Both the position numbers and the translations under genes were made by a program. DNA of 23,626 bases, taken from positions 1,128,664-1,152,289 of the forward strand of contig WELB01000019.1 of the NCBI GenBank assembly GCA_009602725.1, in the 5' to 3' direction. Shown here one piece after another: positions 3,801-23,626 of this stretch (within the stretch, counting starts at the first letter, position 1; each line of letters starts with the position of its first letter). Source of the stretch: Spirogloea muscicola (Eukaryota > Streptophyta > Zygnematophyceae > Spirogloeales > Spirogloeaceae). Under the pieces are notes generated by a model. The model had not been told where the DNA came from, did no database searches, and saw only the letters and a list, made by a program, of their open reading frames with translations.

Positions 3801-6625
3801 TTGGCAAATGCCGCAATCTCGAGCCTAATTGTTGCAAATGGGGCAGAGGTCACTACAGGCATCCATTAGCGCAGAACATGCATAAACAGGTAACAGTATC
3901 CCCAAGTAAAACCCAGGTCCCAAGTTGATGGCGATCAGGAGGGCAGGGGGCATACAGGCACTCGCCACTCGCCTGGAGCAGGTTGGTGCACATAGCCATC
4001 TCGCCGCACGTGATGTCGGCGCCCAGCGTCTTGGCGACGCGGCGGAAGGGCAGGTTCCCGACTGTCGTCAGCGGCGCGAGATATAGCTTGCCGCGGAAGT
4101 CGACCACCCGCCGCTCCCGCGGAGGGGCCCGCGTCGGCTCTGGAGCCCCGCCATCGACGTCCCCATGTGGACCTGCTACTGTGGCCTCGCTGACGGACCC
4201 ATTCACACCACTGCCAATGGGAGCGCCATCGTGCTCCTCAAGGCCGTGGGATCTGCCATCGCCCACCCTCCGCAGCCGCTTGACGCCATCGGCCTCCAGT
4301 GCGTCCTCGTTCCCACTGTGGAGAGCCATGCCTTCCTCCACCGCAGCCGGCTCGCCATCCCCCGCAAGCTCTTGGACCTTCCGCTTGAAGCCCTCGCTAA
4401 CATTTTGCAGGCCGTCATCGCCCTCCTTGCCAGACATGTCGTCCAGCACCACGTCCTCGCCAGGCAGTCCTTTCGGCGGGCGCACCTTGGCCTTGCTCTA
4501 GAAGCACAGGCATTGCATACGAGCAGCATTATCAGGCACTTGTAGATCCTGTTATGTTTCTGAATCCAGTTGTTAATGGAAAACCATCACGAGCTAGTCA
4601 ATCCTCACCCAGCTGCCTAGCCTTCAGCACTCATCTCACTCTTCTCACGCCACTTGCTGGCCGTAAGCACTGCACACTACTCCTTCCAAAGCACAAATTG
4701 TACACCTATTGGCTTGACCTTCCTATCTATTTCTTCTAACTTCGGGTTGAAGAAGTTTGACTCAAGTGGTGCTCAGGTGGTCCACTCCTTTTTGTACATG
4801 TATTTCCAATAACCTGCACACCAGCATAGCTAACAGACTGGCTGATAGGAAATATGTCTGCGGTTGCAACTTAGGCACTACGGGCTTGGACTTCATATTG
4901 CTGTCTTTACCAGGAGGCCGTGGGCGCGAAGGTATGCATCGGCGCGCGGGAAGGCGACGCGGTTCTTCCACAGCAGCTTCTGCAGCTCCTTGCTCAGGCC
5001 GTTGGCCTCTCCCTCGGGGCCTTTCTTCTGTGCGGCCCCTTGCTCAGGGGCGACGCCCGCTGCTGCCACGCCGTTTGCAGGAGCGGCGTGCCGCCCTGCG
5101 AAGCGGCAGGCCAGCCCGAAAGGGCACAGGTAGGGCTTGCTGGCAAAGGGGCAATCGCCGTCCAGGTCGGCAGGTTTCTGCAGTCAGCCACAATTATGAC
5201 TGCTCAGAGAAACAGTCCTGATCAGAGATAACAGACGCTATGTCAACATGTATTACCGTGTGTAGGAGAAAGTGCTAGAAGTGCTGAGGTATATGTGCTA
5301 GTGCAAATCTGATCCTAAACCCCAATCCACCGTCACTCTCCGTCTTGCCTGTGGAGGTGTCAGGGAGGTATCCAGTCCTGCAGAGGCATGCTAAGTGCTT
5401 GCTAGCCGCGGCCTTGCCGTGAGGAGCAAGTGTGCAAGACATAAGCTGCGACTGTCCCGCTCTCAGACAAAGCACACACCATCATCCGGGGTCACGCAGT
5501 TACTTTAAGATGGGGCCCAACGCTTGCGACTACATGCAGATGAAGTGAAGGCGAGAGCATTGTGGGCTAGGAAGGAGGGGCAGGACTGACGTGGCAGCCC
5601 TGGGCTTCGTCTTCATGGAGGATGAAAGCCTCAAGGCTTGACAACCCAGCGATTAACTCCAGTGAGTAAGTCAGGGGGAGTAATGAGTCAGGAGTTCTGA
5701 AAACCCTGAGCGTAGATTCGAAGTCGGGTTCAGAAGAATAGCAAGAGGGAAGTACTGGCTACCTGGGCAAGGAAGCCCGCCAGGTCATGGTTGAAGCGGC
5801 AGGCAGCACCATAGGGGCAGGCATCGGTGCGGCCGGCCCGAGCTACTGCTGCACAGACGTGCTCTGCTGACACCTTCGCCTGCATGATGAGGCGGGACCA
5901 GGCGCGGAGAGTCAGGCTGGTGATCAATTGCTGCAGAAACACAGGGCAAGGCAAATAGAAGGGGCAACACAATCAAGATATATCCTACATGGCCAATGGA
6001 ACTGTAAGTCAACTATACTTTGATCTCATCCTGAGCAACAGTAGCTGTAGCGCCTAACGAGACAAAAAGTAAGGCTGCAAAAGAAGAAGATGGGCTGCTG
6101 ATCATAGAACCGTCAAAGGCTTTCAGTCCTGTTTCCGTAGGTTCATGAACATGATTTTCATTTGCGGATAATTCACGGAGCTTTTGGAAATGGTCCGATG
6201 ATTATTATCAAGAAGTATTCAAGACATGATGTGCGACTCTCATGTGTGCTAGTCTAGTGTCGAGATAAACATAAGAATTGATTGAGCCTTACATTTGCAA
6301 TGGTGTAAGATACGGTGAATCACCTGCTGCCGCTCCCGCTTCTGCTGCCGCCGGGACTTCTTGCCCGCCGGCATGCCCGCCGCCGTCAGCGGCGCCAGCA
6401 TTGCGGGCGCCGCCACTTGAACCCCATTCTCCAGATTCGCAGCACTTGAGGCTGAAGTCCCTTCCGTCTGCTCTGGGGTCTTTCCGCCCTCCTTCGCCGA
6501 CCAGCCCCTCGGTCGCAGGTATTCCCGCTTTACCGGCGCCCGGTTCTTGGCAACCAGCTCCGCCGGTGTCAGGGCGGTGGTGCTGTCTGCCAGGCTGCTG
6601 CAGGCAGGTGGAGCTTCTGCGCTTC
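830..6625 (-). CDS. DUS3: tRNA-dihydrouridine synthase 3 (CCCH zinc finger DUS3), 12 exons
   Basis: DUS3 is an FMN enzyme that reduces a uridine of the tRNA variable region (U47 in the yeast enzyme) to dihydrouridine, using NADPH. Exons, high to low: 6625-6324 (start uncertain), 5879-5763, 5177-4911, 4497-3973, 3775-3650, 3455-3402, 2901-2809, 2470-2294, 2112-2005, 1763-1643, 1354-1185, 928-830 (TGA). All junctions keep frame, giving about 718 residues. In order they hold [15 protein letters not shown]; a first CCCH finger (C-X11-C-X5-C-X3-H); a second finger ending [13 protein letters not shown]; the [18 protein letters not shown] segment; a long acidic variable linker; the flavin-barrel start [29 protein letters not shown]; the catalytic Cys in [14 protein letters not shown] (codon 3428-3426); the [18 protein letters not shown] motif; and a terminal [13 protein letters not shown]. 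The initiating Met was not found: the frame stays open upstream without DUS3-like sequence, so a small first exon is probably missing. Family identity is very secure. Confidence 0.93.
1133..1163. repeat. Short telomere-like TTAGGG/TTAGGGG tract in a DUS3 intron
   Basis: The intron between the last two DUS3 exons contains AATTAGGGTT and AATTAGGGGTTAGGGTT close together. This resembles algal/plant telomere units but is very short and degenerate. Confidence 0.25.
2544..2640. repeat. 48-bp direct tandem duplication (period 49) in a DUS3 intron
   Basis: Bases 2544-2591 and 2593-2640 are identical by eye, separated by one base. Both lie in the intron between the exons at 2809-2901 and 2294-2470. 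A perfect tandem copy points to a recent slippage or duplication event, or to an assembly artefact. Confidence 0.9.
3776..3972 (-). other. GC-AG intron of DUS3
   Basis: The exon ending NLLQ stops at CAG and is followed on the minus strand by GCGAGT. The next exon begins after TACAG with GGC CAG (G-Q-A-S-E-W), which restores the conserved [13 protein letters not shown] junction in phase 0. Nearby GT dinucleotides would insert residues that the family lacks, so a GC donor is the best reading. Confidence 0.75.
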
Positions 6626-6784
6626 CTGCAGCTGGGAAGGAGCCGCTGGCCGTCAGCTGCCCAGCCCAAGGGACTCGGGCGTGGGAGAATGCAGGCGAGG
6701 CATGAAGGAAGGCCGGGTCATGAAGAGAGGGCGGGGGGGTGACAGAGGGAGAGGGAGGCGGAGGGGGGGTGGAGAGGAGAGCAA

Positions 6785-7311
6785 GAGGGCGAGGGTGACA
6801 ATGCTGACAACGTCTACTGGCAACACCGCGTGAGCCGGCATGAGGCGGCTCGGATTGTCCTCCATGGCAGTGCTGAATTTGAAGCCTGCAATGTGACCAT
6901 CGAGGTACCAGCATCTGTTTACAGGCTGCAGTATAATGCATGAAGGCATGCTGATTATTTGTCACTTCGTCTGCTGGCATCCTACTGGGACTGACCAGAC
7001 CATCACGGGTGGTCTTTGGCTGTCGCAGGGCCAGCAGACATTCGAAGTCCCGACTGGCCATCGAATGCGCGTGTCATCCTCTGCCAGCGGTGGTGCGCTT
7101 TCGCCGTGCTCACTGAGGCTGTTGATTATTTGTCGGCCCGTTTTGTGTCCCTCTTGAAACATCTAGATCTAATACTGGTCTCTGATTTTCTGCTGCAGGA
7201 ATGCAATGCCACTTGGAGCCTTTGTCAAGCGTTCACAGCAGCTGGGAATGGAAGTACGAGCTTCACGCTGAGGACATGAAGGTTGAGCTCACGCAGACGT
7301 TATCGAGCTAA
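6785..7311 (+). CDS. C-terminal exons of a UDP-sugar pyrophosphorylase-like protein (5' part missing)
   Basis: Three exons join in phase: about 6785-6904, 7029-7089 and 7199-7311 (TAA at 7309). They encode RIVLHGSAEFEACNVTIE, then GQQTFEVPTGHRMRV, then SSWEWKYELHAEDMKVEL near the C-terminus. From memory, a stack of short beta strands with FEVP.G+R and a closing W.WKY motif resembles the C-terminus of plant UGP3-like nucleotidyltransferases, but this is not certain. Donors GTACCA and GTGGTG and acceptors TCGCAG and CTGCAG fit. An in-frame TGA at 6740 limits the first exon on the left, and no good plus-strand acceptor is visible in the purine-rich tract there. Upstream exons would have to overlap DUS3 antisense, and none were found. 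It is either a real gene tail displaced by rearrangement or assembly error, or a duplicated gene fragment. Confidence 0.5.
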
Positions 7312-8059
7312 CACTAAGCGGCCTGCACATGTCCTACTACATTGCTGCAAGCTTAGCTGGCAGTTCTCTTTCACATTGCTGCATTAGTCAAGCAGACAGC
7401 TGGCGGCCTAGCTTACGCCTCGCAAGAGCCCCTTGGAAACAGATAATCCCATTCATTCTTGAGATTCATTCTTGAGCAGGTTGCCAGAGTCGTCTGGGCC
7501 GGTCTCAAAGTATGCTTGGCATTCATTGGCACTGGTCAACGATTTTGTTGACACTGCCTTCCTCGTTGGCACCACTGACAATGATTGGAGCTATGTGGAC
7601 TTCTGAGATTGGCGCACGTTGGCCTCAATCACAACCAACTTGGGCAGCCAACATATGGTGTCTATCTCCTGAAGGTTGCCAAGTAAAGGTAGCTGCAGGT
7701 GTTACTGCCTTTCAAGCAGGCACCTCAGGCCCATATCGATGCCAGCAACACAGCTCTGAGCAAGGGGCTGGAGGCAGCAAGGTGCTGGAGGCAGCTGAAT
7801 GAGGGGCGGGGCATGGCAGGGCTTGGCACTGTTGCAATCATTAGCTCAGGCGTGTACGTCCAGCCAGCAGTGGGCGGGCCATGAAGCTGATGCCTCAATT
7901 CCAGGGCAGCACTACAGCCGCGTCAAAGCAGCTAGTGATGCGGGTGTCGTGAAGCTCTAAGCTTCTTTTTGAGGCGCTGGCGACCCTGCACAGCGAAAGC
8001 TCACTGCACCATATTGACCAGGTGACAGCCTTGTGCTTGACGCAATGTACTGAGGCATG
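7312..8059. other. Region between the pyrophosphorylase-like tail and NOP58; no assigned gene
   Basis: This should hold the 3' untranslated regions of two convergent genes. A plus-strand open segment around 7508-7606 (peptide with YAWHSLALVNDFVDTAFL, ending TGA) and another around 7640-7884 have no recognisable family. No TGTAA signal was seen on either strand here. Confidence 0.4.
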
Positions 8060-10030
8060 CTACAACTCAGCCTGCTGGGTCTTCTTCTTCTTCTTTGGTT
8101 TTTCTGTTCCTCCGTTGAGTGCAGCAGCACTGGAGTCTCCTGCAGCTTTCCTCTTGACCTTCTTGCCAGCCAGCCCCTCTTCAGCATCTTCCTCAAAGTA
8201 CCTTTCCTTCTTCTTTCTTGTTGCCTTCTCCTGTGCTCATGCAGGCAAGGTTGAGGATTGGAAATACCAGGATAGACATTTAACATCATATTATATTTAT
8301 TCCTCTCAGGCCACTTCATTAGCAGACAATGTAGTCTCCGATTAGCTTACCACCTTAGACTCTAGTCGCCACCTCTGACACGCAATGCCAGACAGAGGTG
8401 AGTGACGACTTACTGTGACTGGAGCACCACCGTCTGGTGCCGGCTTCACAGTGACAGTTGTCTCCTCCATCTCTATCGTTTTCACTATCTTCTTCTTCTT
8501 GGGCCTTGTCTCCGCCGGCTCGCCTGCTGCAGGAGTCGCCTCAGGTGCCTCGACAACAGCCTCTCCCGTGCTGACCACTGACTCCTTTTTCTTCTTCTTC
8601 TTTTTCTTCAGCTCTGCTCGAGCTTCACCAGCAGCCTCCTGAGCGTCGACTGTCAAAGTCGAGTCAGCCGCCGGGTTGTACGCCTGCATTGTGGAGCCAA
8701 CATATGAGTGCAGTGGTAAGGCCTCCACAAGCTCCAGATTCTATCTGATAAGGCAGGACTCATGCTCGCCAACCATTTCAATTACCGGCAGTGAGTTATG
8801 GACAGACTCCCCACCTTGGCTGTCGTTAGGAGGAGAGGGGCATCCCTTTTGCGATCGCGGTCATATGCCTCCACCATGGGCTTGCCCCGTGCAGCGCCGC
8901 TTGTCTTGGCCATCGTCCGGCCCTCCAGCTGCCGCAGCCTCGCCTCCAGCTGCACATAAAGGAACTGCACTGCTTACCAGCCAAGATCGTGAAATTACAT
9001 ATGTTTGTTCCATCTGGCCCACGCAAACAAATGGATGCAGCATGCACTTGACCACGCTCTGACAATTACTGCACTCCTATGTCTTGGGTGCTTCAAGGAC
9101 GGTGGCTGCGTGAACCTTGGCCCGGCTCTCGAGGCCAATGGTGGGTTCTGAGCTCTCAGCGAGGGCGTCGATGCGGATCGAGAGTGCACACTTGGCAGCA
9201 AGCGAGCGCGAGATTTTGCCCTTCAGCTTTGGCGGCGCCTGCCCGATGAGCGACGCATGATATATCAGCCCATACTTGGGCGTCTCGTGTTTTGTTTTCA
9301 GCGCACGAAAAAGTGCCTGCACAAAGCGAGAGGACAGAGTCAAAAGTGTGGTTTGATAGTCAGCCTACTGCCCAAAACATGATCCGTCAAATGTAGCTTC
9401 TGACGCCTATTGAAGTAGCTGAAAGTATGTCACCTTCTCTGCGCCCAGGATCTGCACGGTGCTGGCGGGAAATTTGGCCAGATTGATGAGGCTGCCCGCA
9501 TGTGCGATGAGGCGCGCACCCACAAGCTCGCCAACGAGCACCGTGAGGTTGGGCGCAATCGCCGCCATGCGTGAGCGCAGGTAGTCATATAGCTGTGCGC
9601 GGTACTCAGCCAGCGAGATGACCTGCTCGCACAGCGCCACGATATTCGCCATGTCCTGCTCGCTGACCTCCGTGCCCATGGAGATGACTGCCGCCTCCTT
9701 CATGTCCACCTCCACCTCCTCAGAGAGAACCTGGCCAAAATTTGCACGTTGAACACAATATAGCCGATGTGAATTTCTCACTACACTTCCAGCAATGGCA
9801 ACTCTGTCAGCTACTGAACTTGGCACTGCAATGTCATTGGATTGAAAATTGGGTTGCTGCGAGAGTACGTGCCAGCAGAAGGGTGTTGAGAGCGGCAGGG
9901 GCACCTCAGAGAAGTCCATGGAGGCGGCGCTCGTCCGCGGCCCCATCAGGCGCACGACCTTGGCATACTCGATGTTGTCCGTGACAATCTTGGCAAGCTC
10001 TGGAAAGTGCCAGCCGTACCATTCGCGCAC
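8060..10030 (-). CDS. NOP58: Nucleolar protein 58 (box C/D snoRNP core), 5'-truncated
   Basis: NOP58 is a core protein of box C/D snoRNPs, which direct 2'-O-methylation of rRNA in the nucleolus. Exons, high to low: 10030-9905, 9730-9434, 9316-9116, 8949-8815, 8683-8414, 8230-8060 (TAG), all phase 0, 399 residues. They contain [16 protein letters not shown], the [19 protein letters not shown] coiled-coil region, the Nop domain ([18 protein letters not shown]; then [20 protein letters not shown] and [17 protein letters not shown]), the RLRQLEG segment and a Lys-rich tail with a run of eight lysines. KYGLIYHAS and [11 protein letters not shown] separate it from NOP56. The usual protein is about 500 residues; the N-terminal domain is absent because the sequence stops exactly at the N at 10031, and nothing beyond it matches. 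Confidence 0.93.
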
Positions 10031-10403: not shown

Positions 10404-10493
10404 ATGGCGCTCGCGGCGGCGGCCATGCCAGGCTGGAAGGCGCTGCTCTGGGCCGCCGTGCTGCTGGGCTGCTGTGCCACCGGCGCGCTCGCC
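10404..10493 (+). other. Signal peptide of the large protein
   Basis: Residues 1-30 have a short start with one Lys, a hydrophobic core (ALLWAAVLLGCCATGALA) and a likely cleavage after A-L-A, just before a Cys. A second in-frame ATG at 10425 (residue 8) would keep the same signal, so the exact start is ambiguous. It implies secretion through the ER. Confidence 0.8.
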
Positions 10494-13400
10494 GCCTGCG
10501 TAGCACCAGGTGGGCGCCCACGTCCTGCGGGGCTGCCCGTCCCGAGGTCCCCTTCTGCAATGTGAAGCATGGCCCTGACCAGGCCCCACTGACGCACCCC
10601 GCCGCTGCGGCCGCGCCGCGGCTGCAGCTGGCAGCGTCGTCGGGCAGGAGAACTGCCTGCCCGGCGCCGGCGCGAGCTGGCGGCACGGCGTTGACTCCAG
10701 TATCGTCGGCTTCTCAGACGACATCAGCTACGAGCCCGGCAGCACTGTCAGCTTCAAGGTGGCTCCTGGTCCTCCCCTCCCTCGTGACAACTCTCCGTCT
10801 GCCTCGTCCTTCCCTTCCCTTCCATTCTCGAGCTCCTGTACAACACCCATGTTAGCTCCACTGCGAGCTGGTCAGCTCACAATGGGTAACTCCTCTCGCA
10901 GCAACCTTGCCATGGACGAGGCTGTTTGCAAAGCGAATCCGAAGGTCGTCACCCTTGAGCAGCATGCGTGCCCTGGACTGCTTGTGCTCACTGATTGTCA
11001 CTACTGTTGGGGCTGTGCCTGCTGCATTCTGGCATTCACGCAGATCAAAGTGGCCACTGGCAAGGCGTTTGCGTCTTTCAGCGTGCTGCGGCTCGGTTGG
11101 TACAACGGCGATGGCGCGCGTGTGGTGACCACGGCACCTGTGACGGCCACCGGCACCGCCACGCAGCCGGCGTGCGCTTACAACTCCACCACGGGCCTGG
11201 AGGACTGCGGCAACTGGGCCACGATTGCAACGTGGACAATTCCAGCCAATGCTGTCTCTGGTTTGTCACCTTCACACACTTTCCCCTCCCTCCAACGGCC
11301 TCCCCTCTTTAGCTCTGGGCTTGTCGCACAGGCCTCTACAGTCGCGCATCCGAGCTTCGTTCTCATCACCATCATGCGCTGGTTGTGTTGTTCGTGACAC
11401 TGGAGCATGAGGCAACGAAGTATACTGATTGGATGGATAGTGGGTATGATTCTTACATTTGTTGTTACGCTTGCCATTGTGGTCCTTACTGATTCATCGC
11501 CGCTTCCTCACTCCTCAGGTGTTCCCTCACGTTCTTGTCATCCTTGCAGGTCTGTATTTGGCACAGCTGTAAACGACAGGCAACTTGTACAATTATGTTC
11601 CCTTCATCGTTCGACAGCGTGCAGCAGACATCGCTCAATCGGCCATCCTCTTCCAGACGTCTGACACAACCTGGCAGGTCCAGCTTCCTCAGCCGTCACT
11701 TATGCAAGCTTCCCCACTTTTCCCCTGATCAACTCATGGTAGTGGATGCTGCCACAGAGAGGCCATTGCCATCAGCGGGGCGTTGGCAGAGGTTCCATGG
11801 GTGATGAGCAGAAAGTTTTGTATTCTCGTTCACGCCTTCGTGTTTGCATAGCTGTCCTATCTGAGGAAGTATGGTCACCATCTGCATCCTTGGTCTGCAA
11901 GTAGCAACTGAAGACTGTCAAGACTGTAGTGCAACTTGGCTGCGTCTATTGAGCTGCCTCCTGTGAGTTCGCAGGCTTACAACTTCTACGGGGCCAGCGG
12001 GAACAGCTTGTACCGTGGCACGGGCCCTGGCAATGGGGCCTCGTCCGGTAGAGCATACAAGGTTTGGCCATGACAATTAAACTGCGCCTTCACGGTCTCA
12101 AGTCCTTTTTGCATAAACAAACCCAGGGCCTGTGAGCATGCAGAGTCTGCTCGGTGACAATCACATCAAAACTTAACCCTGAAGTGTCTTGCTATGCTTA
12201 TACGCAGGTCAGCTACAACCGGCCGTTCATCACGCAGTCCGGGGATTCAGTGAGCAACTCTGTCACAGGGCCGCAGGACTTCCTCTTCAATGCCGAGTAT
12301 CCCATGATCCGGTGGCTTGAGCGCAATGGATACGACGTTTCGTACTTCTCTGGCGTCGACAGTGATCGCTATGGCTCGCAGATCCCGGTATAAATCATTC
12401 CTTCTCAAATAGCATGTAGGCAGCTATAATTGGCGTGCTTCAAGGCCAAGGGGCCAGCAATTGCACACAATTTAAGCCTTCTTTCAGATATGCTACATGA
12501 CGCATACATCATGTAGCAACACACCGATGGTGGTACCATGAATACATTGTAGATTGCAGTTAACTGGATTACATCCTATCATGTGACTTTTGGTTCATGT
12601 CAATGCAGCTTCACAAGGTATTCATATCAGTTGGCCACGATGAGTATTGGTCTGGCGGCCAGCGGCGAGCTGTTGAGGCAGCCAGGAACACGGGCGTTCA
12701 CCTGGCATTTTTCTCGTGAGTTTTCCTGCGCTGCAGGCCATCACATGGCATGCAAAAGAAGAGTGACGGCAGTACTTGACTATTCTTCACGTCAACGTGC
12801 ATTCGACAGGGGCAACACTGTCTTCTGGAAGACGAGGTGGGAGGCTGACCTGAACAACAAAAGCTACCGCACACTCGTTTGCTACAAGGAGACACATGAA
12901 AATGCAAAGATTGATCCCCTTCCAACTGTCTGGACAGGTGGCCTCTGCTCCTGACGTAGCAGATAGCTCTGGTTGTCTCACGCTTGCACTCCACATGTCC
13001 AAGTGCAAGCATGTCTGAGCAAGCCCTGCCACTGCTCGTTTGTATTGCTGTCAGTACTCTGGTGTAGCACTCTGCTTATGTCAATACTGCATAGTGCATT
13101 TTGCTGCTGTTGTCAAGTGCACGCCGCAAAATGTACGTAGTTGTCTGTCCCAGCCAGGCTACTCGAAGTAGCCAGGTTTGCCATGGAGCGGTCATGGTCT
13201 GACAGCGAGGACTGACAGCCTCTTTCTTTATCAGGGACTTGGAGAGACAATCGTCCTTTTGTGCCCTCTGGTCCTGATGGAGGTAACCAGCCGGAAAATA
13301 CTCTCACAGGCCTCATTTTCCTTGTGACTGGTGGTACCGTGGATTTGCAGGTGAGAGGGCTGCATAGGCTAGTGTACAATTGAATCTTATTATTCGAGAA

Positions 13401-16400
13401 GCATGCTCTATCGTGCTTAGGCTCACACAGTGTCCACAATATGCACGCTAACTATGCACAAATTTTTATCTCACACAGTGCATTGTACGTAAAGTAAAGC
13501 ACTCTGTGCTTCACAGCATGTTTAGGAGAAGATAACGTAAAGGGAATACTTGTGTGATACTTTGAAGGTCATGCTTGTGGTGCAGGTGCCTGTGAGCGCC
13601 AGCCGATTGCGGTTGTGGAGGAACACCGCGGTGGCCTCGGCGACGACCACAACCACCCTGGTCCCTGGCACAGTTGGTTATGAGTGGGACGTTGACACTG
13701 ACAACGGCCTTCGTCCTGCCGGTCTGCACGAGAAGGGCCTTTGACCTCTGTTGGTAAATCAAGTTCAGTACATTTGAGTGCTGAATTACAGAGATCCATT
13801 GTCAATCTTCACCTGTACTGCTGCACATTCAGCAGGTTGCAATGACTTATCCAACACTGGCAGCTGACGGGTTTGCCAAGTGCTGGCAGGGCTCATTCTG
13901 CTGTCCAAGACGGATGCGCAAGGAGTATCTGTGCTGGTAGACCAGGGGTCGAACTACGTCGACGGGCCTGCCACGCACACGATAAGCTTATACAAGTGGG
14001 CACTCTACAAGCTATGCTAATGTGCTCAAGCATGTGAATAGTCCACATGAATGGATCACATCAACATGTCTTTGCAGAGTGCTCTGCTAAACCCCTGCTG
14101 ACAGTCAGAGGTGGCCTGGCTTGGGAGGCAGACACGCCAGTGGAGCCCTGGTGTTTGCATCTGGCACTGTCCAATGGGCGTGGGGCTTGGACGGAGTCCA
14201 CGACCGTCCTGAGAACTCGCCAACGGCTGTCGACCTCCAGCCAATGCAGCAGGCCACAGTCAACCTCTTCGCTGACATGGCGGTCCTCCCTGCCACCATC
14301 CAGGTGTCCCATCTTGTCATTTGACCACATATATTTGTGGCCTACTCTGTGAGCCCTTACCCATGTATGAAGATGCTAGAATGTAAAGATCCAGAAGGTG
14401 CAATATCACTAAACACGACTCTTTCCCGTATGACATAAGCTGGACAGTGACCCTTTGACACCTCATCTCCGTGCTGCGCAGAGCAACCTGGTGTCTACCA
14501 CCGCTTCAACGGACACACTGGTGCCAACTGCCAGCATTGACTCTTACCCGCATTCAGGGTCCTCCTTTGCACAAGGGGCCTCTGTTTTAATCAGTGGGAG
14601 CGCGAACGATCCGGGCTCGGAGGCGAGCGCCACCCAGATTGGCGCCATCGAGGTATCCACTAATGGTGGAGCAACTTGGCACCCCAGCACCACTCTAGTG
14701 CGCAGCTCAACAAGGTGCACAATTGCCGCCAGGCGTGATGATCCTTGGCCAGCCCTCCTTGACGCTAATGAGCGTTGCGCTTGAGATGCCATGCACAATG
14801 TAGAGTCCAGAGGGCAATACGACCTTTACCGGCTGCTTAAAGTTTACTGCTGTGGCCAAGTGTAAGTCACCTGACTAGTCAGTGTGTGTGGCGTGCACCT
14901 GCAGTGCTACCTGGACGTACATCTTCACAATTTCCAGCAGCACTTCCTCCCTCAGCCTCAGCCTTGCGGCACGCGCCACGGACGACAGTTTCAACACAGG
15001 GGACGCTTCTGCGAGCATATCGGTCGTTTACCAGATATCAGGGCAGCCAGCTGTAAGCGGACCTGGCTCGCCAAACCACTGCCCTTGCAGGATCTTCGGA
15101 GACAGCTTCCCAGCACCCGACCTTGTTGACGTGTCTGATGGGGTGAGCCACCGCAACAAGGAATTTGGTTTCTCTCAACCCACATTTGTGCAACCTACAA
15201 TCAGACAACCTGCAGTCAGACCTTAGCTAGTCCTACTGAGGTCTTTCTGAGTATATTGGTGGGGCAAACGCTGACAACCAACAGTGCTGTGGAGGGACTG
15301 ATGTGGACCAGACTGTGTCGCTTGCTGCCAGCTAACAAGGGCAATATGTGTCAACAGCATCCAATCACTGTCGGCAACAAGGTGTATTTCCAGTCAGATG
15401 GCTATGTCACAGGCATGCGTCACTATGCAAGTGTCAGCAGCTACTCCTACACGGCCCGCTTGTACCAGCAGGACTGCACTCTCCTTGGGCAGGTCAGTCA
15501 TTCCGCACGGCCTGAAGGGGCTAATCAGGTGCTTGTTTGAAAGGTCGGCTGTTTTGTATGTGAAGGACGTGGAGAATCTCCTATTTTAAGCTTGGGTGTT
15601 GACCTGATAGTGACATCGCATAGATCATTGTTGATCTCTGCTCGAATGACCTTCACTTCTAGTTGTCTTGATTATATTTGGCTGCCACTTGCAGGCCGCT
15701 TTCCCCGCCGTTTCCACCGCAGGCTGGCAGAACGTCTACTTTCCATCCCCTATACAAGTCACTGCAGCCACTACATGCGTGGCAGCAGGTCAACGTTCAA
15801 TGCTCGTCAGTCCTGTGCAAGTAGCAAAGAACAACTATTGAACTATTTGCAACACTTTTGGCTCTACTTCTCAATACTCATCATGTGTGTGCTCTGAGCT
15901 TGTGCTCGCACTCGGTGATTGCAGTCTACTCACCGGATGGTAGATACAGTGACACAAATGGCTTCTTCGGAAGCATCACCAGTTACTCCGACTCGCAAGT
16001 GGCATTTGGTCAGGGAAACACCGCTGCCAGCCCCAACAATGTCTACATCTATGACAACGCATGCCCCAATGGTCCAGGCGGCTCGACTTATCAATCAGCC
16101 AACTACTACATTGATGTCATCTTCGATTACGTCTCCGGCAGTTCAGATCCTCCAGCTGTAAGATCTTATAATGCCCAGTACCTCTGACTTTGCAGCTTAC
16201 ACCAATCAAGCTGGCAGCTCAATTTGCAAATGCATTCAGGGCTTACATGCTATCACACGTGCGAGTCTTATACTTATGACAACTTGCAGGTGCTTAGTAC
16301 TAGTCCGGCAGATCAGGCCACCAGCGTGCGTACCAGCATTACTTCGGTCATTGCCGCATTTACTGAAAGCCTGGACCCTGCCACTGTGTCATCAAGCACC

Positions 16401-19400
16401 GTGACACTGATGGATGGTACAAACCCAGTCCCAGTAAGTGACTCTCTTCTGTCACACTATTTTTATATTATCATTGCATGCCGTAATCAGAGAGCTGGCT
16501 TTGCTGTCGTTGAGCTAGCCTTGTTGTGGCCACCACGCCCATTTGAGCAAAGCCTTGCAATTACTCATTATGGCTCAAGTGGCCCTGGCAGGGAACCGTC
16601 AGCTACGATTCCTCGCAGCTTGCGGTCGTCTACACACTGTCCGACAGCCTCGACGGGTCAACCAACTATGTGCTGACAATCAAGGGCGGGACAAGTGGGG
16701 TGAAAAACACTTTGGGGACACCGCTTTCTTCAGATTTTACCTCAAGCTTCACCACTGGTGCTGCACCCATCGTGCTGCCAAATCCCAACAACGATAACGG
16801 CCCAGGTATACTTTGTGCTATGTAAATAGTGCTCCAATCTTGAGTGTGTGGAGTCGAGCTCTTGTTTGCTGCAGATTAGAAGTATGTGAAGCCTTGGGTT
16901 ATCACAAGAGCGAGTCAACTTGCTATGACTAGTGGAGGGCATCGGGACCTGGGGCTGTTGTCATTTGATGGTCAATTAATGGCATTCATCAACTCTCATT
17001 AAGTCAAACCACCTTGCAGGGGGCCCAATCCTGGTGATTGTCAGTACCACCAACAAGTTCTGCCGCTACTTTAGCGAGATCTTGCGTGCCGAGGGCTTCA
17101 ACTTGTTCACGAACAAGGACATTTCGGCTGTGGCCAGCGCGGACCTCATGTCTGCCGATGTGGCCATTCTTGGAGACATACAGGCCGTGACCGCCGCACA
17201 GGCAAGCAAGCTCGAGCAAAGTATCTGTGGTATAGTTGCGCCAACAGGGCGTGGCAACTTGCGAGAAACTTACACGTGCAGATTTCGTATACTGCAGACC
17301 TAAGCAGCATACAATCAGCCTGGCATGCAGATTCCTCGCGGCTCGGCAACTCATCTTCTCGCATGCATCTGCGTTGGGCCTTGGGCAGGTTTCATTGTTG
17401 TCCAACTGGGTGGCTGGTGGTGGGCGACTGATTGTCAGCTGGCCAAGCACGCTATTTGCCTCCCTCCTCGGGCTCACCAGTGTCTCGGGCACCATCAGCG
17501 AAGGCTACTTCCTTGTCGACACTACTGTGGCACCTGGCAAAGGTACGCACATGTCAAGACCTAGGCATCTCAGGAAAGGTGTGCAAGGATGCAAATTTAA
17601 ACTTGTTTAGACCTCCATAATACTGCTTCTTCATAGACATGCGCCTCAAAGTCAAGTTCTATCTCTGTTCTGCGCTTGCAGGCCTGACATCTGAATCGAT
17701 GCAGTACCACGGAACCAGCGACCAGTGGCAGGTCGATGCTGCAGCTTCTCCGGCCACACGGAGGGTGGCCAGCCTCTCGGCGACGGCAACAGCGAGCACC
17801 GGGCTGGTGGCCGTCAGCTTGCGTGCAGTGGGCGTCACGGGCGGCCAGGTGGCTGCTTTCACGTTCGACATTGCACGTTCTGTGGTGTACACAAGGCAGG
17901 GCAACCCAGCGTGGGCAGGCCAGGAGCGCGACATGATCAGCCCCAAGCGTTCAGATGACCTGTTCGCCCCGCAGCCCTGGCATCTGCAGTGCTATCAACC
18001 ACTACAAAATTATGAACCCTCCAAGTGCAATAGTAGACCCTTGTATATTACGTGTGGATCCACCTTCAGAGCTAGTATTGAAAGTGGTGCCAAGATGCAA
18101 GACATGCCCTCCCCAAGGGCTGCACTTTTTTGACAGGAGTTCGTGTAATCATGACACAAGCATCTAACGAGAGAGGTCTACGTTGCTCTGTAGCAGATCA
18201 GGCAGTGTTACTGCTCTCTGAGTTGTTTACATGCCCGTGCAGATTCTACGGCGTGGTCGGCCAAGAGTGGGTGAACCGCGACAAGGTGCATATCCCTCAG
18301 GCAGATGAGCTGATGCGGCTACTGTCCAACGTCATCCGTGCGCTGACCCTTGACATCAAGCCCCTCCCCAAGCTCTGGTACTTCCCCAACTACTACAAGG
18401 TGGTCATCATCCTGACGGGCGACGAGCACGGGGACGGCAATGTCGCTAGTCGCTTTGACAACCTGATGGTGACGCTCTGTTCCATCTGGCAAATTCAGAA
18501 GTAGATCCCCTCTATCAGGCGAATCTCAGACCCCACATCACAGATCCTTACCACATAGACGCAGTTGTATTTATCCTAGTGCTGATACTTAAGTAGACCC
18601 TACATTGCGTCCTGCTATCTTCCCTGGCAATAGCTTGGCATGTTGACAGCAAGCTCCTTATCGTAGCCTGACCTCATTCATCTCAAGTTCGTGCTGTTGT
18701 GGGCATTGCCACCTTGCTAGGCTGCCGATCCACCAAGCTGCAACCTCACAAGGTGGGAGTGCATTAGGGGCTCCTCGTACTTCTACCTGGGTGGCTCCTT
18801 CAGCAACACGCAGGCCCAGGTCCACTGACTCCTGCCCATGCCTTGTGCCAATGCATGATGGTTGTTACTTCAGCAAGTCAGACGCTATCTTAATTACGTC
18901 AGTCTCAATTGCTGAACTTCTTGTGGGCCTGGACTTGCAGCACTATCAATCTCTTGGTTTTGAGATGGGGGTGCATGTGAACACCGGCTGCGCCGACTGG
19001 ACACCAGCAACTTTGGACCAATTCTATGTTGACCAGCTAGGCTCATTTGGTGAGAAGTACACATCAGTGCCACCGCAAACGACGCACCGCACGCACTGCA
19101 TTGCGTGGAGCGACTGGGCGACGCAGCCGAAGGTGGAGCTCAGCCACGGTGGGCCGTCAATGAATAACCTTCACCTAGACACAGGCCTCCTTCACATTGC
19201 TTTCTGGCACGCAGGATGCTTAAGTACAGCAACAATCATCACTGTGTACCTTACTCGCAGGCATTCGGCTGGACACGAACTACTACTACTACCCCCCTTT
19301 CAACACGCAGGGCCAGCCTGGCTGGATCTCCGGCACGTATGTTGGCCACATGTCTGGCTCTGCACTTCCCATGAGGTGCGCCCACTTAAGCTGACAGCAT

Positions 19401-22400
19401 TGACACCGAGCAGTAGCAAGTTGAGGAGCCACCTCCCAAGCCGTTTGACTAGATGTGCTGCTGACACTATCTTCGAGGAATTTGACAACACTCCTGGGCA
19501 ATGGTCAGTTACTTAACGCCCATGTTTCACCACACAGATTTGCAGACCTTGACGGGACAATAATTGACGTCTTCCAAGTGATGACGGAGATGACGGATGA
19601 GTCAGGCCAGACATATCCGAGCTTTGTGAACACGCTCCTGGATGCAGCTCTCGGCTCGCCGCAGTACTACGCCGCTCTGACAGTCAATGCTCACTCCGAC
19701 TCGGAGCCCAACCCTGTGACCCAGGCGATCGTAGCGGTGACCGTCATGCTGCCCAGAAGAACCCCGTGACCCAATTGCAGGGCACATACTGCATGCTTTA
19801 AATGATGGGCTTATGCATCATGCAGGTCACAAGAACATCACAATCTGATATTAGATATTTGTCGCTTTGTGCAGTCAAGCAAGTCAAGGAGCACGCCAGT
19901 CGTCAGTGCTACTCAGATGCTCCAGTGGATCGATAACCGGAACAAGGTGTCATTCAGCAACATAGTCATGTCGCCGGCCAGGGACTCACTGACGTTCACC
20001 GTCGCCACCTCGGGCAGCTTCCCCTGGGGCGTTACGTCAACCCTGCCTACCGCTATCAATTCGGGTATGTGCTCTTAACAGGTCAATAAAGGGGCTCTGA
20101 TGCCATGACTCTGGCTTTCAGCAAATCCAGCTGGAGTTGATGGTACAATAGCATGAGTATCCAACGACTTCTTATTATAAATTACTTCATCAGCATCAAC
20201 CCCCAATATGCAGTTGATTTGAGCTGCAAGCTGGATTGCAGCTGCATGGACTTGGCTGTATCTCACAAACTTGATTCATGTCAGGGGTGCTGCTGGGCAT
20301 CACTGGACCAAACGGCGTTGTCTCGTACAAATCCGACACAATAAAGGGTGAGTATGGCAGCCAGCCTCGCTAGCATGCCCCTTGGTGACATGTCACACTG
20401 CAGCAATTATGTTGGGATAAAGAATTTATTAAGAGTGCCCATGTTAACTACGAGTTTCATCCATGTCCAGGCATTCAGCACGCGGTCTTCGCAGTCATGC
20501 CGGGCGACTACACTGCCGCGTATAGCAATGCGCCGCTGCCGCCGTCGCCTCCGCCGCCCCCACCTGTGCCTTCAGCCCCAACGCCCGCTCCCTCAATCCC
20601 TCCCTCAACTCCTGCACCAATGGTCTACGACAGCACTGCTGCAGACTTTGCAGCAGCTACCTCGTTGTCGGCTGCCTGCTACGTATCCCAGGAATCTGAT
20701 GGCGAAGTCATTCTGGCCCCCACACTTGGTGAGCTTATCAGTTGCCTAGAACAATCTGTAATTTGTAGTTAAGGCATCTGATGCAATGTTAAGTACGATA
20801 GGCCTTAGGTGGACAGTGCAGCACCAACTGAGTGCTACAGAGATGGTCACCAGCCTGACATCCTTCAAACCGAGTGTGGCAGCGATGGAGTTTCCGTCAC
20901 CATTGGGGCCCAACTTTGAGGCAGCTATTTGGGATGGCACAGGCTCGCTGACCAACGCAGCGACTGGCAAGTTGACATTGAGCCGAGCATACGTACGGGC
21001 AGCGGCATACACTGCCGCCCCCACTGCCGATCAGGTTGTTGCGCTCGAGTTCTCCGCAAACTTCTCAGCCGACGCTACTGCCTCCCAGAACCAGCATGTG
21101 GGCTTTGGCACAGACCTTAACAACTGCCCCTGGGCCCTCATAAGCACGACCAGGGGCTCATCAAGCCAGCTGTATGCACGAACATGCGGCCCCTCGAACA
21201 CTGACGAGGTCATTGGTCTCGGCGACAGCTCCCTTGGCACCTTCCACACGTTCCGTCTCGAGGTGGGCGGCGCTTGGCTCCTCACTCCCAACCTCTGTAT
21301 CCTCTATTGACCCGTTCGCTAGGCAAAGAAGTAGCACCGAAGCAGACAATGACCTGTGTTTCCTACATTTGGCTGGCAGTGGCGGGCAACCGGCTTTACG
21401 TACCTGCTCGACGGCGTCATTGTGGCCACATCAACCATAACCATTGGAAGTCAGTTGAGGCCGATTGGCAGCGCATACTCGAGTAACCCAACAACGCTGA
21501 CACTGGACTGGCTGCACCTCAGCCCCTACAGCTCCGCAGCGTGCCAGTTCACATCGCAGCCGCTGGCAGCCCCAGGGGCCGCGGCGGTTATGTGGCAGTC
21601 CCTGACACTGGATGAGGATGTGCCAGCGAGCACTTCGGTCGGGAGCGTGGCATGGAGCTACGGCAGTGTCCTGCCACCAGACGCGTCCTGGAAGACTGTG
21701 GCGCTGCCGGTCCAGGCGAGTCCCACATGGGCGCTGAGCCCTGCGACGGCGTCGAAGTACATGACTTACTCATTTGCACTGGCGTCAACCGATGGGCAGC
21801 ACACCCCGACAGTGCGGCAGGCTGCCGCCACTTATGGGACAGGTAAGCCGCTGTTGTTCAAGCATTAGGATTCAATCTCCTGATTTGCCTCAATGCTCTG
21901 TAGATTGCAGCGGCTGAGGCCTTGTGCTTGAACCTGACCGTGCAAAGCTTTCTGCAGCGTCCTCACCGGCGCCGCCGCAGCCGGTGTCTCCTCTGCCCCC
22001 TCCCACGCTCCCGCCACCTTCGCCGAAGACGTCACCTCCAATACTGCCGCCCCCTCCACCAACGCCAGTTGCACCAACGCAGCCCCCAATGACAATCTTA
22101 ACAGACACAAGCACCGCAGACTTTGCCGCCGGCTCAGGGGCTGGCTGCTATGTTGCTCAGCGCAGTGACGGGGAAGTGATTGTGGCGCCAACACTTGGTT
22201 AGCCTACTCTTGCCACAAAGCTTCTTGGGGTTGTTGCAAGCTGGGCTTGATTATCCTTGTGCAAGACGTTAGACACACATCAATCTTACATCTGCGCTTT
22301 GCCTTCTGCCTGTTGTCCAGCAACTGAGTTTTCAACACCAGTGGGCTCTGACTTCGAGGCAAATACCTGGGACAGCCAGGGTGCATTGACGTACGACACA

Positions 22401-23626
22401 ACGGCGGGCACTTTGACGTTGAGCCGAGCGTATGTGCGGGCGGCAGCATTCACCATTGCCCCCATCGGCAGCCAGGTCATTGCGGTCGAATTCTCAGCAA
22501 AGTATGCAGCTGACGCGGCTGCGTCGCAGTACCAGCATGTTGGGTTTGGCACCGACTTGAATGCCTGCCCGTGGGCTATCATCAGCACAACACGAGGCAC
22601 ATCAGGCCAGCTGTATGCACGGACATGCGACGGAACAAACCTTGAGGAGGTCATTGGCCTCAGTGACAGCTCCCTTGGTGCCTTTCACACGTTCCGCATT
22701 GAGGTGGGTGGCTCTTGTTGGCCCCACGTGCTTCTTCCAGTGTGGTCTCCAGTTTGGTTACTCTGTGTGCACGGTCTTGTGGCCCAGATCTCTCATTGGT
22801 GAAGCCAGACTGGACACGCGGCAGCGAGAGCATGACATGTAACCTCTACCTTTGGCTTGCAGTGGCGTGCGACTGGATTCACATATCTGCTCGACAACGT
22901 CGTGGTGGCAACGTCAAGTGTGACAATCGGCGCCCAGATGAGGCCGATCGGCAGCGTGCTCTCAAGCAACCAGCCCATCCAGCTGACGTTGGACTGGCTG
23001 CACCTTCTACCATACGGTCCCACCTCACCCTCTTGCACGTTCACGTCACGAGCGCTTGCTGCGCCAGGCAGCACACCGGCTCTGTGGACCTCGCTCAGTC
23101 TCGAGGAGGACGTGCCGGCCGGCACGTCTGTCACGTCAGTGAGCTGGAGCTATGGGGACGTCCTGCCGCCGGATGCGTCCTGGACGACGACGGCTCTGCC
23201 TGCCAATGGTGGCCCAGTCTATACACTCGCTGCAAGCCGCTCGACCAAGTACATGGCCTACTCGTTCGTTCTCTCATCGTCAGCTGACGGGCAGCGCACG
23301 GCAGCCATTGGCAGAGTCGCTGTCTCATACCAGCCAGGTGAGCTTCTGTTACATCACCTCACTTGTTTGTGCAAATGGATTACTCGCATGGCTGTTTGTG
23401 CTGTGAGCCGGCTCACACAGTTGCCAGTTTCGGGGCTGGCTGTTCACAGCCCTTGCCCCCTTTCGGAGAGCCACTTTCTTTCATTTGATTTTTCTCTTTT
23501 CATTTTAAATGCGTCTCATTCGCAAGTACATCTGTTTGCCGCAGCTACGCCGCCACCGCCTCCGCCGCCGCCACCCCCGCCTCCTCCGCCGCCCCCGCCT
23601 CCTCCGCCGCCGCCGCGCCCGGCGCC
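10404..23626 (+). CDS. Giant secreted multidomain protein of bacterial type (DMFase-like/DUF4082), 36 exons, 3' partial
   Basis: Exons: 10404-10509, 10628-10758, 11044-11260, 11550-11677, 11975-12061, 12208-12387, 12609-12715, 12810-12937, 13235-13350, 13586-13721, 13890-13995, 14132-14303, 14482-14714, 14905-15142, 15358-15492, 15695-15788, 15925-16157, 16290-16433, 16592-16805, 17020-17201, 17389-17542, 17682-17961, 18243-18468, 18721-18819, 18941-19148, 19261-19375, 19538-19736, 19875-20064, 20285-20347, 20471-20728, 20883-21262, 21380-21842, 21958-22197, 22321-22703, 22863-23337, 23545-end. Every junction agrees in phase, giving 2,300 codons. Order: signal peptide; DMFase-like (about 36-538); Ig-like; DUF4082; Big_5; Rossmann/amidotransferase-like; deacetylase-like (about 1174-1556); two lectin-like modules; third Pro linker. 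From memory, bacterial secreted proteins share this order. Probably wall-bound or extracellular; its substrate is unknown. One in-frame TAA lies at 11570. The last linker runs off the window. Confidence 0.85.
10628..14303 (+). other. N,N-dimethylformamidase beta-like domain (exons 2-12)
   Basis: Residues about 36-538. Landmarks in order: ENCLPG near the start; SFSVLRLGWYNGDGARVV; GLEDCGNWA; LFQTSDTTWQAYNFYG; YKVSYNRPF; FLFNAEYPMIRWLERNGYDV; SVGHDEYWSGGQR; HLAFFSGNTVFWKTRWE; LVCYKETHENAKIDP; GYEWDVDTDNGLRPAGL; and TVQWAWGLDG followed by QQATVNLFADM. DMFase is known as an iron enzyme with Tyr/Glu ligands. A GHDEY / GNTVFW pair occupies the place of the family's H-x-E-Y / GN-x-F-x-W motifs as I recall them, so an active site may survive. 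The substrate is unlikely to be dimethylformamide itself. Confidence 0.75.
11570..11572 (+). other. In-frame TAA inside conserved exon 4
   Basis: With the acceptor TCCTTGCAG (ending 11549) the exon reads G-L-Y-L-A-Q-L, TAA, then T-T-G-N-L-Y-N-Y-V-P-F-I-V-R-Q in the same frame. Both sides fit the family. An AG ending at 11579 is also phase-compatible with exon 3 and would drop 30 nt including the stop. Confidence 0.9.
14482..15070 (+). other. Bacterial Ig-like domain (Big_7 type)
   Basis: Residues about 539-670. The domain shows GASVLISGSANDPG, IGAIEVSTNGGATWHPS, then after an intron ATWTYIF and LAARATDDSFN. The pattern 'EVS.DGG.TWHP...W.Y......AR..DD' is typical of Ig-like repeats that follow catalytic domains in bacterial secreted enzymes. 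Confidence 0.7.
15071..16157 (+). other. DUF4082 domain
   Basis: Residues about 670-849, across exons 14-17. Landmarks are CPCRIFGDSFPAP, then VYFQSDGYVTGMRHY, TARLYQQDCTLLGQ, AGWQNVYFPSPIQVTAATT, VYSPDGRYSD and a closing YYIDVIFDY. These follow the known DUF4082 layout (CPC..IW start, GVKF..D..G.ITG.R.Y, GWQ...F..P..I.A.TTYV, YHAPNG.Y, NYWVDVVF end). The family is thought to be beta-sandwich and carbohydrate-associated; it is non-catalytic as far as I know. Confidence 0.75.
16290..16805 (+). other. Big_5 / SbsA-type Ig-like domain
   Basis: Residues about 850-968. It opens with STSPADQATSVRTSITSVIA, then FTESLDPATVSSSTVTL, VVYTLSDSLDGSTNYVLTI and ends SSDFTSSFTTG. This is the Big_5 signature (SP..GA..V.....I...F...MD..TV....V.L / L.....Y.V.I...........FTT) found in bacterial surface proteins. 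Confidence 0.75.
17020..17961 (+). other. Rossmann / class I amidotransferase-like domain
   Basis: Residues about 969-1173. It contains ILVIVSTTNKFCRYFSEILR, DVAILGDIQAVTAAQ, SLLSNWVAGGGRLIVSWPS, GTSDQWQVD and VAAFTFDIARSVVYTRQGNP. The 'DV.ILG....T.AQ...L.NWV..GG.LI' pattern is that of ThuA/GATase-1-like alpha/beta domains. No catalytic nucleophile is evident, so it may be a structural or binding domain. Confidence 0.6.
17202..17388 (+). other. GC-AG intron of the large gene
   Basis: The exon ends VTAAQ at CAG and is followed by GCAAGC. The next exon starts after GGGCAG with GTT TCA TTG (V-S-L-L-S-N-W), which restores the family pattern TAAQV..L.NWV in phase 0. Downstream GT sites would add residues or break phase. 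Confidence 0.75.
18243..20514 (+). other. Carbohydrate deacetylase-like domain
   Basis: Residues about 1174-1556. Landmarks: IPQADELMRLLSNVI, KPLPKLWYFPNY, VVIILTGDEHGDGN, then WECIRGSSYFY, GFEMGVHVNTGCADWTP, HCIAWSDWATQPKVELSHG, IRLDTNYYYYPP, PMRFADLDGTIIDVFQ, MTDESGQTYPS, ALTVNAHSDSEP and VVSATQMLQWID. The order acidic pair (TGDEHG), HVNT and late AHSD resembles metal-binding motifs of NodB-like deacetylases. From memory the bacterial relatives read TGDDHG, so the second acid is D to E here. Enzyme activity is inferred only. Confidence 0.6.
20471..21842 (+). repeat. C-terminal module copy 1 (linker + ADFAA segment + lectin-like domain)
   Basis: Exons 30-32 (258, 380 and 463 nt; entry phase 1, then 1, 0, exit 1). 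The first holds the end of the deacetylase-like part, a Pro-rich linker (PPSPPPPPPVPSAPTPAPS) and TAADFAA...SDGEVILAPTL. The second holds LTLSRAYVRAAAYT, HVGFGTDLNNCPWALISTTRG and SQLYARTCG. The third starts WRATGFTYLLDGV and holds LRPIGS, LTLDWLHLSPY, DEDVPASTSV and LPPDASWKT. From memory this is the concanavalin/lectin-like C-terminal module of bacterial relatives. Confidence 0.85.
21958..23337 (+). repeat. C-terminal module copy 2
   Basis: Exons 33-35 (240, 383 and 475 nt) with the same intron phases as copy 1. A longer Pro/Ser linker (LPPPTLPPPSPKTSPPILPP) precedes TSTADFAA...SDGEVIVAPTL; then TLTLSRAYVRAAAFT, QHVGFGTDLNACPWAIISTT, WRATGFTYLLDNVVV, QLTLDWLHLLPY, EEDVPAGTSV and VLPPDASWTT. 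Many long identical stretches with copy 1 show tandem duplication after the introns were in place. Confidence 0.9.
23545..23626 (+). repeat. Third proline-rich linker, cut by the window end
   Basis: After acceptor GCCGCAG, in the same phase as the other linkers, the exon encodes A-T then an almost unbroken polyproline run ending R-P-A. The position suggests that a third module follows outside the window. Confidence 0.8.

What the first reader, a model, noticed from the sequence alone, without database searches (positions are those of the whole stretch)
10404..23626. Bacterial-type giant secreted protein embedded in an algal genome with 35 introns
All 36 exons join in one consistent phase and give a domain order (DMFase-like, Ig, DUF4082, Big_5, Rossmann-like, deacetylase-like, lectin-like modules) that I know from bacterial secreted proteins rather than eukaryotes. 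The gene has a eukaryotic signal peptide, dense short introns and algal-style Pro-rich linkers. This suggests an old horizontal transfer that was domesticated, probably for work in the cell wall or on external polysaccharides. The domain order is known from memory; the transfer is inferred.
Basis: partly seen in the sequence, partly recalled or inferred. Interest (0 to 1): 0.87.

Follow-up and report, generated by a model that had tools for sequence, protein, structure and literature searches.

The report
Bacterial exoprotein domesticated in land-plant-sister alga

Summary
The 36 exons join in one phase, and all 35 introns keep both splice sites in two further copies of the gene in the same genome. 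Between copies dN/dS is 0.18-0.19, no exon indel shifts the frame, and introns carry 82-99 indels. One exception: this copy has an in-frame TAA (11570-11572) where both others read CAA. A EukProt gene model, SM000019S05113, is identical over 1187 residues; by the recalled SM prefix the host is Spirogloea muscicola. The order amidase, deacetylase, C-terminal module occurs in 30 of 200 bacterial proteins examined. Of 247 listed hits, the only two from a eukaryote source are fragments of this alga's own copies. Bacteria-to-alga transfer is by far the best reading; the donor phylum is unresolved. The C-terminal module was duplicated after introns had entered it: both copies share three of three intron positions and phases. 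Likely function (inferred): a secreted enzyme removing N-acyl groups from extracellular polysaccharide, with an iron-amidase-type domain whose mapped active-site residues are intact and a deacetylase-fold domain that lacks the canonical HXXXH motif.

The parts
10404..10509 (+). exon 1, start codon (10404, or 10425 as in the EukProt model of the C64 copy) and signal-peptide-like hydrophobic stretch
10628..10758 (+). exon 2 (acceptor corrected from 10583)
   Evidence: agrees with EukProt model P0128 of the C64 copy
11570..11572 (+). in-frame TAA in exon 4; CAA in the C64 and C29 copies
11080..14192 (+). DMFA2_C domain (DMFase-like amidase; residues 92-501 of the corrected model, exons 3-12) with Tyr207, His293, Glu295, Asn321 equivalent to DMFase Y440, H519, E521, N547
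14524..14938 (+). Big_7-type Ig domain, weak (E 0.014), exons 13-14
15116..16112 (+). DUF4082, exons 14-17
   Evidence: E 2.4e-23
16146..16756 (+). Big_5 Ig-like domain, exons 17-19
   Evidence: E 1.6e-13
17020..17961 (+). alpha/beta (glutamine-amidotransferase/ThuA-like) domain, exons 20-22; exon 20 has a GC donor
   Evidence: fold from the bacterial homologue L036; splice sites
18370..19949 (+). NodB-fold deacetylase-like domain, exons 23-28, with Asp1234, Glu1235, His1236, His1294, Cys1299, His1442
20515..20619 (+). Pro-rich linker 1 (exon 30), not seen in the 15 bacterial proteins aligned
20632..21842 (+). C-terminal module M1 (GH16/concanavalin-type fold plus C-terminal strand region), exons 30-32
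21960..22097 (+). Pro-rich linker 2 (exon 33)
22107..23337 (+). C-terminal module M2, tandem duplicate of M1 with introns at the same positions and phases, exons 33-35
23545..23626 (+). exon 36, poly-Pro run cut by the contig end
   Evidence: acceptor conserved in the other copies

Best explanation
The locus is one of three copies of a nuclear gene of (most likely) Spirogloea muscicola for a secreted multidomain protein of about 2,300 residues. It was acquired whole from a bacterium and domesticated. Shown: bacterial homologues over the whole length, conserved introns, purifying selection, and a C-terminal module duplicated after its introns were in place. Inferred history: transfer of an intronless gene, gain of 35 introns and of Pro-rich linkers, internal module duplication, the genome triplication reported for this species, then a recent nonsense change in this copy. 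Inferred function: the protein enters the secretory pathway and works on extracellular mucilage or wall polysaccharide. Its C-terminal concanavalin-type modules bind glycan. A NodB-fold deacetylase with an attached amidotransferase-like domain, arranged much as in Agd3 and PelA, removes N-acyl groups from amino sugars. The iron-amidase-type N-terminal domain cleaves a further amide. My confidence is about 0.9 for the bacterial transfer, 0.4 for the deacylating function and 0.2 for the exact substrate.
Against: The HXXXH metal motif of CE4/CE18/CE21 is absent: 0 of 167 bacterial rows and no algal copy has His at +4; one His and a Cys at +5 (166 of 167) remain. The metal Asp is Glu in the alga (Asp 162, Glu 5 of 167 bacteria). 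By VIA-align Z, glycosidases (6tvk 20.3, 5xb7 20.0) rank above Agd3 for the two-domain model, through its first domain and a strand domain. The third DMFase Fe ligand Y399 could not be placed and no small-subunit gene was sought. Bacterial neighbours include exopolysaccharide genes only in a minority. The gene's GC3 is 0.68, somewhat below exons of two neighbouring genes (0.81, 0.77). No transcript or activity data. The copy in the window carries a stop.
Confidence: 0.8

Rival explanations
1. Ancient eukaryotic gene kept only in this lineage and lost elsewhere; the similarity to bacteria is vertical.
For: The unrooted tree cannot exclude a root on the long algal branch.
Against: Among 247 listed hits of three searches the only two from a eukaryote source are this alga's own fragments. 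The same order in several bacterial phyla would require losses in almost every other eukaryote.
Confidence: 0.04
2. Two-step transfer: bacterium to another eukaryote (fungus, other alga), which added introns, then to Spirogloea.
For: The algal stem is long (0.70 and 0.87), leaving room for unsampled intermediates; how many eukaryotes the database covers is not known to me.
Against: No eukaryotic relative other than this alga's own fragments was listed.
Confidence: 0.1
3. The window copy is a recently dead paralogue; only the C64 and C29 copies work.
For: In-frame TAA in exon 4, upstream of the mapped active-site residues and of all later domains.
Against: Branch dN/dS of this copy is 0.18, like the others (0.20 and 0.17), so any loss is recent. 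A single-base assembly or sequencing error, or a polymorphism, is not excluded.
Confidence: 0.5
4. The protein is a non-catalytic wall or mucilage scaffold; the enzyme folds are relics.
For: HXXXH absent; GH16 catalytic motif absent from the C-terminal part; several domains are Ig-like or lectin-like.
Against: DMFase active-site equivalents and the catalytic-type Asp and His of the deacetylase part are conserved in all three copies and in 165-167 of 167 bacterial rows.
Confidence: 0.2
5. Bacterial contamination or misassembly.
For: None beyond the bacterial domain order.
Against: Dense introns conserved in three loci, neighbouring genes of eukaryotic type on the contig, a second locus with a syntenic neighbour, EukProt models at two of the loci.
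Confidence: 0.01

Closest known systems
Bacterial DMFA2_C/DUF4082/Big_5 large exoproteins (e.g. from Caldilineaceae L036, Dyadobacter L039, Tautonia P0030)
   Same: Same kinds of domain; 30 of 200 have amidase, deacetylase and C-terminal module in the algal order; 46-47% identity over 99-100% of the core in six of 120 listed hits
   Different: The algal version has 35 introns, Pro-rich linkers where the aligned bacterial proteins have Ig-like, DUF4082 or FN3 domains, and two tandem C-terminal modules with shared intron positions
N,N-dimethylformamidase large subunit (6lvb) and N-acetyl-(R)-beta-phenylalanine acylase (8i5a)
   Same: Homologous catalytic domain (4e-7 and 3.7e-19); Y440, H519, E521, N547 equivalents conserved
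   Different: The long stretch between the N-terminal part and the catalytic part (residues 43-338 of 8i5a against profile positions 45-89 here) is missing; no small subunit known; substrate unknown
Agd3 (CE18) and PelA (CE21) exopolysaccharide deacetylases
   Same: Amidotransferase-like domain followed by a NodB-fold deacetylase; catalytic-type Asp and His present
   Different: No HXXXH metal motif; Glu for the metal Asp in the alga; rmsd 10.2 over 471 residues with 6nwz, so domain orientation differs; no sequence-level match in the PDB
GRAS and PYL genes acquired from soil bacteria by the Zygnematophyceae/land-plant ancestor (PMC12448838, passages read)
   Same: Bacteria-to-streptophyte transfer reported from the same algae
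   Different: Those are regulatory genes shared with land plants; this is a giant exoprotein found only in this alga among the hits listed here

Membership tests
DMFA2_C (Pfam PF20254) | Profile score above the curated cut-off | tested here: met
   337.4 bits against cut-off 27
Iron amidase of DMFase type | Fe ligands Y440 and E521, essential H519, active-site N547 (residues from PMC7686228) | tested here: met
   Profile alignment to 6lvb; present in all 3 algal copies. Iron itself not tested
Iron amidase of DMFase type | Third Fe ligand Y399 | tested here: inconclusive
   Outside the aligned stretch; the Tyr of WQAYN, invariant in 167 of 167 bacterial rows, is a candidate
N,N-dimethylformamidase proper | Pentraxin-fold domain II (residues 74-337) inserted before the catalytic domain | tested here: not met
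   Profile positions 49-156 span residues 33-433 of 6lvb and positions 45-89 span 43-338 of 8i5a, so there is no room for it; filed as superfamily relative only
N,N-dimethylformamidase proper | Small subunit and activity on dimethylformamide | not tested
   No search for a partner gene, no assay
CE4/CE18/CE21 deacetylase | NodB-type (beta/alpha) fold | tested here: met
CE4/CE18/CE21 deacetylase | HXXXH metal motif | tested here: not met
   His at +4 in 0 of 167 bacterial rows and in no algal copy; one His and a Cys at +5
CE4/CE18/CE21 deacetylase | Catalytic-base Asp and catalytic-acid His | tested here: met
   Asp 167 of 167 and His 165 of 167 bacterial rows, both in the alga; positions assigned by motif order, not by superposed coordinates
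CE18 (Agd3) | N-terminal amidotransferase-like CBM87 domain before the deacetylase | tested here: inconclusive
   An amidotransferase-like domain is present and 6nwz aligns over 471 residues, but rmsd is 10.2, glycosidases rank higher, and glycan binding is unknown
GH16 | E-[ILV]-D-[IVAF]-x(0,1)-E catalytic motif (recalled) | tested here: not met
Bacteria-to-alga horizontal transfer | Algal gene nested in a bacterial clade | tested here: inconclusive
   Long single stem; an alternative placement was 4.5 log-likelihood units better, p-AU 0.58
Bacteria-to-alga horizontal transfer | Patchy presence: widespread in bacteria, not found in other eukaryotes sampled | tested here: met
   absence is limited to the listed hits, the length limits and the database's eukaryote coverage

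The most novel reading that the evidence does not exclude
[quoted passage not shown] It now uses it to deacylate amino-sugar polymers of its own mucilage. That would make it a working DMFase-superfamily enzyme in a eukaryote, which I know of nowhere else, built into the algal matrix through plant-type Pro-rich linkers.
Probability: 0.3. Interest if true: 0.75.

Novelty: new member of a known kind. Interest (0 to 1): 0.62.

Why it matters
Transfers from soil bacteria are already held to have helped streptophytes onto land, but the best-known cases are regulatory genes (GRAS, PYL). Here a 2,300-residue multidomain exoprotein came over whole, in the species placed as sister to all other Zygnematophyceae (PMC9632326, passages read). 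The bacterial homologues used here are single open frames, so the 35 introns should all be gains after transfer. Three copies allow dating relative to the reported genome triplication, and one internal duplication is dated after intron entry. That makes the gene a clean test case for massive intron gain. It also gives a concrete enzyme candidate for modifying algal mucilage. The EukProt models cover only fragments of the gene and so hide it.

Tried and rejected
A home-made splice-aware predictor with a weak intron penalty gave 131 exons, mostly false; a stronger penalty gave 38, two of them empty. I then set exon borders by hand with the bacterial domain pattern in mind. Two borders (exons 2 and 31) were wrong there, which made the C29 copy look frame-shifted (39 stops); they were corrected after the EukProt models showed better acceptors. 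Searches used the uncorrected version, which has 15 extra residues near the N-terminus and 14 extra at exon 31; domain coordinates in this report are shifted accordingly.

PDB searches with single algal sequences found nothing relevant, and the profile of the amidotransferase-deacetylase region found no PDB sequence. Pfam gave no deacetylase match at E up to 5 for four proteins, so that domain rests on fold comparison.

Exopolysaccharide genes flank two bacterial loci (L065, L070) but none of ten ORFs scanned at L036, L042 and L078 matched a family I would count as such, apart from lipid-type PAP2 and CDP-alcohol transferases. In 132 flanking ORFs from 40 loci the counts were Bac_transf 4, epimerase 4, DegT 2, outer-membrane barrel 7, gamma-glutamyltranspeptidase 6. 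These 132 came from 277 (up to four nearest per locus, 80 loci); I left out 20 loci chosen by eye as near-duplicates and stopped at the residue limit. Some ORFs may be spurious, and I had no control set of random loci.

The search for a donor failed: the free tree put the alga with P0089, P0030, Pseudomonadota and others (21 rows, support 92), but a tree holding it with Bacteroidota and Chloroflexota was 4.5 log-likelihood units better (p-AU 0.58).

In print: the listed titles and abstract starts of searches for dimethylformamidase (13 papers), DUF4082 (1 paper), Spirogloea with horizontal transfer and bacteria (21 papers) and related ones (part of the papers listed) showed no report of this gene. 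Cheng et al. 2019, the genome paper, did not appear in these listings and I did not read it.
Full report
What is there. The window is the last 23.6 kb of a 1.15-Mb contig of an assembly held as 153 Mb in 471 contigs. From 10404 to the contig end runs one gene of 36 exons. I rebuilt the model by hand and corrected two exon starts. All exons join in one phase; the 35 introns total 6321 bases, about 180 each; phases are 16, 14 and 5 for 0, 1 and 2. One codon breaks the frame: TAA at 11570-11572 in exon 4.

Is it real. The three copies test the exon model without transcripts. Both splice sites of all 35 introns are intact in all three, including a shared GC donor after exon 20. The C64 and C29 copies are open over 35 exons, 2273 and 2270 codons. 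For the pairs window-C64, window-C29 and C64-C29, divergence at codon positions 1, 2, 3 is 3.5/2.2/9.3, 4.6/3.0/13.5 and 3.6/3.1/12.3%, and in introns 14.3, 14.9 and 15.5%. dN/dS is 0.190, 0.175 and 0.180. Exon indels number 0, 4 and 4, all multiples of three; intron indels number 93, 82 and 99, of which 86, 76 and 93 are not. The stop is CAA in both other copies, and this copy's branch shows the same constraint as the others (0.18 against 0.20 and 0.17), so the change is recent or an error.

Which organism. A search with the C-terminal part returned P0121, EukProt SM000019S05113 at s19:1146362-1151999, identical to my model over 1187 of 1187 residues. A search with the N-terminal part returned P0128, SM000064S19735 at s64:87939-90944, identical to the C64 copy over 394 of 418 residues. 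No output names the species. The SM prefix is that of Spirogloea muscicola by my recall; scaffold numbers s19 and s64 agree with contigs C19 and C64, and three gene copies fit the genome triplication reported for it (PMC7994812, passages). Its assembly is given as 174 Mb (PMC11096116, passages), larger than the 153 Mb held here. It is a unicellular zygnematophyte placed as sister to all other Zygnematophyceae (PMC9632326, passages). Probes for two neighbouring genes found two strong copies each, not three. The EukProt models found cover only pieces of the gene.

What it is related to. A search with the 1460-residue core found 2580 proteins (120 listed) in a database of 5.8 billion; six of the 120 align at 46-47% identity over 99-100%. 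A scan of bacterial and archaeal genomes gave 259 encoding stretches, of which 80 were kept, from Chloroflexota, Acidobacteriota, Actinomycetota, Bacteroidota, Cyanobacteria, Pseudomonadota, Myxococcota and others. Of 200 bacterial proteins in hand (120 search hits and 80 loci; two pairs between the sets are near-identical), 30 have the amidase part, then the deacetylase part, then the C-terminal module as in the alga; 90 have the first two in that order without the module; 49 have them reversed without the module; 1 is reversed with the module elsewhere; 25 have the deacetylase part alone and 5 that part plus the module. That count uses three anchor parts; DUF4082 and Big_5 between them are seen in the six full-coverage proteins.

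Direction and donor. In trees of 169 and 85 rows the two algal copies used form one long stem (0.70 and 0.87 changes per site) with no specific neighbour. The 169 rows are 2 algal and 167 bacterial (117 in the algal order, 50 reversed); sequences filling under 70% of either part were dropped. The free 85-row tree groups the alga with 19 bacterial rows at support 92, but a tree holding it with Bacteroidota and Chloroflexota was 4.5 log-likelihood units better (p-AU 0.58). Direction rests on distribution: across 247 listed hits of three searches, the only two from a eukaryote source are this alga's own fragments.

Events after transfer. The C-terminal module occurs twice, M1 in exons 30-32 and M2 in exons 33-35, each preceded by a Pro-rich linker. 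The six algal modules form one clade (support 100) and M1 and M2 are 70.5% identical, against at most 41.3% to any of 59 bacterial module copies from 41 proteins. Three introns cut each module at the same residue and phase: after APTL (phase 1), between FR[L/I]E and WRATG (phase 0), and at the module end (phase 1). Duplication therefore followed intron entry, so it happened in a eukaryote, most simply in this alga. All three genomic copies share both modules and all introns, so these steps precede the split of the copies.

Likely mechanism. An N-terminal hydrophobic stretch of signal type makes secretion likely. The DMFA2_C domain is related to N-acetyl-(R)-beta-phenylalanine acylase (8i5a, 3.7e-19) and dimethylformamidase (6lvb, 4e-7). 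In DMFase, Y440, Y399 and E521 bind iron; the Y440A, E521A and H519A mutants were inactive; N547 is drawn as an active-site residue (PMC7686228, passages and part 2 of the text). The equivalents Tyr207, Glu295, His293 and Asn321 are in all three algal copies and in 166-167 of 167 bacterial rows. Y399 could not be placed.

Verdict. A real, large, domesticated bacterial gene in a key alga; a new member of a known kind (bacteria-to-streptophyte transfer). Its size, its intron load and the ordered internal duplication make it worth following. Function is inferred.

Noticed in passing
window 1312-10030; C29 and C23: Upstream neighbours match different places: the dihydrouridine-synthase-like region matches C29 at 84%, beside the C29 copy of the gene, while the NOP56-like region matches C23 at 93% and was not matched on the C29 stretch fetched. 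This suggests rearrangement after duplication.
   Followed up: partly
C64:68000-78000 (L005) and window end: Two of three copies break off at the poly-Pro exon: the window contig ends there and C64 runs into a long stretch of N; the C29 copy seems to end in a Pro-rich tail with a stop soon after.
   Followed up: partly
L070:4882-13382: In Nostoc linckia two adjacent genes carry DUF4082 and Big_5, one with DMFA2_C and the other with a WD40-type propeller, near Wzt-like ABC transporter, GFO/IDH/MocA and DegT aminotransferase genes.
   Followed up: partly
bacterial proteins P0001-P0120 and L034-L113: The amidase and deacetylase halves occur in both orders: 120 of 170 proteins with both one way, 50 the other, so the family has been shuffled or fused more than once.
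   Followed up: no
window about 2540-2640: A tandem duplication of about 50 bases (ttgaccttgacatctagtaggtgg...), seen by eye.
   Followed up: no
P0122, P0123: Bacterial proteins with more than one copy of the C-terminal module, joined by FN3 or other Ig-like domains; 13 of the 41 bacterial proteins with the module have two or more copies, so duplication of this module is common in the family.
   Followed up: partly
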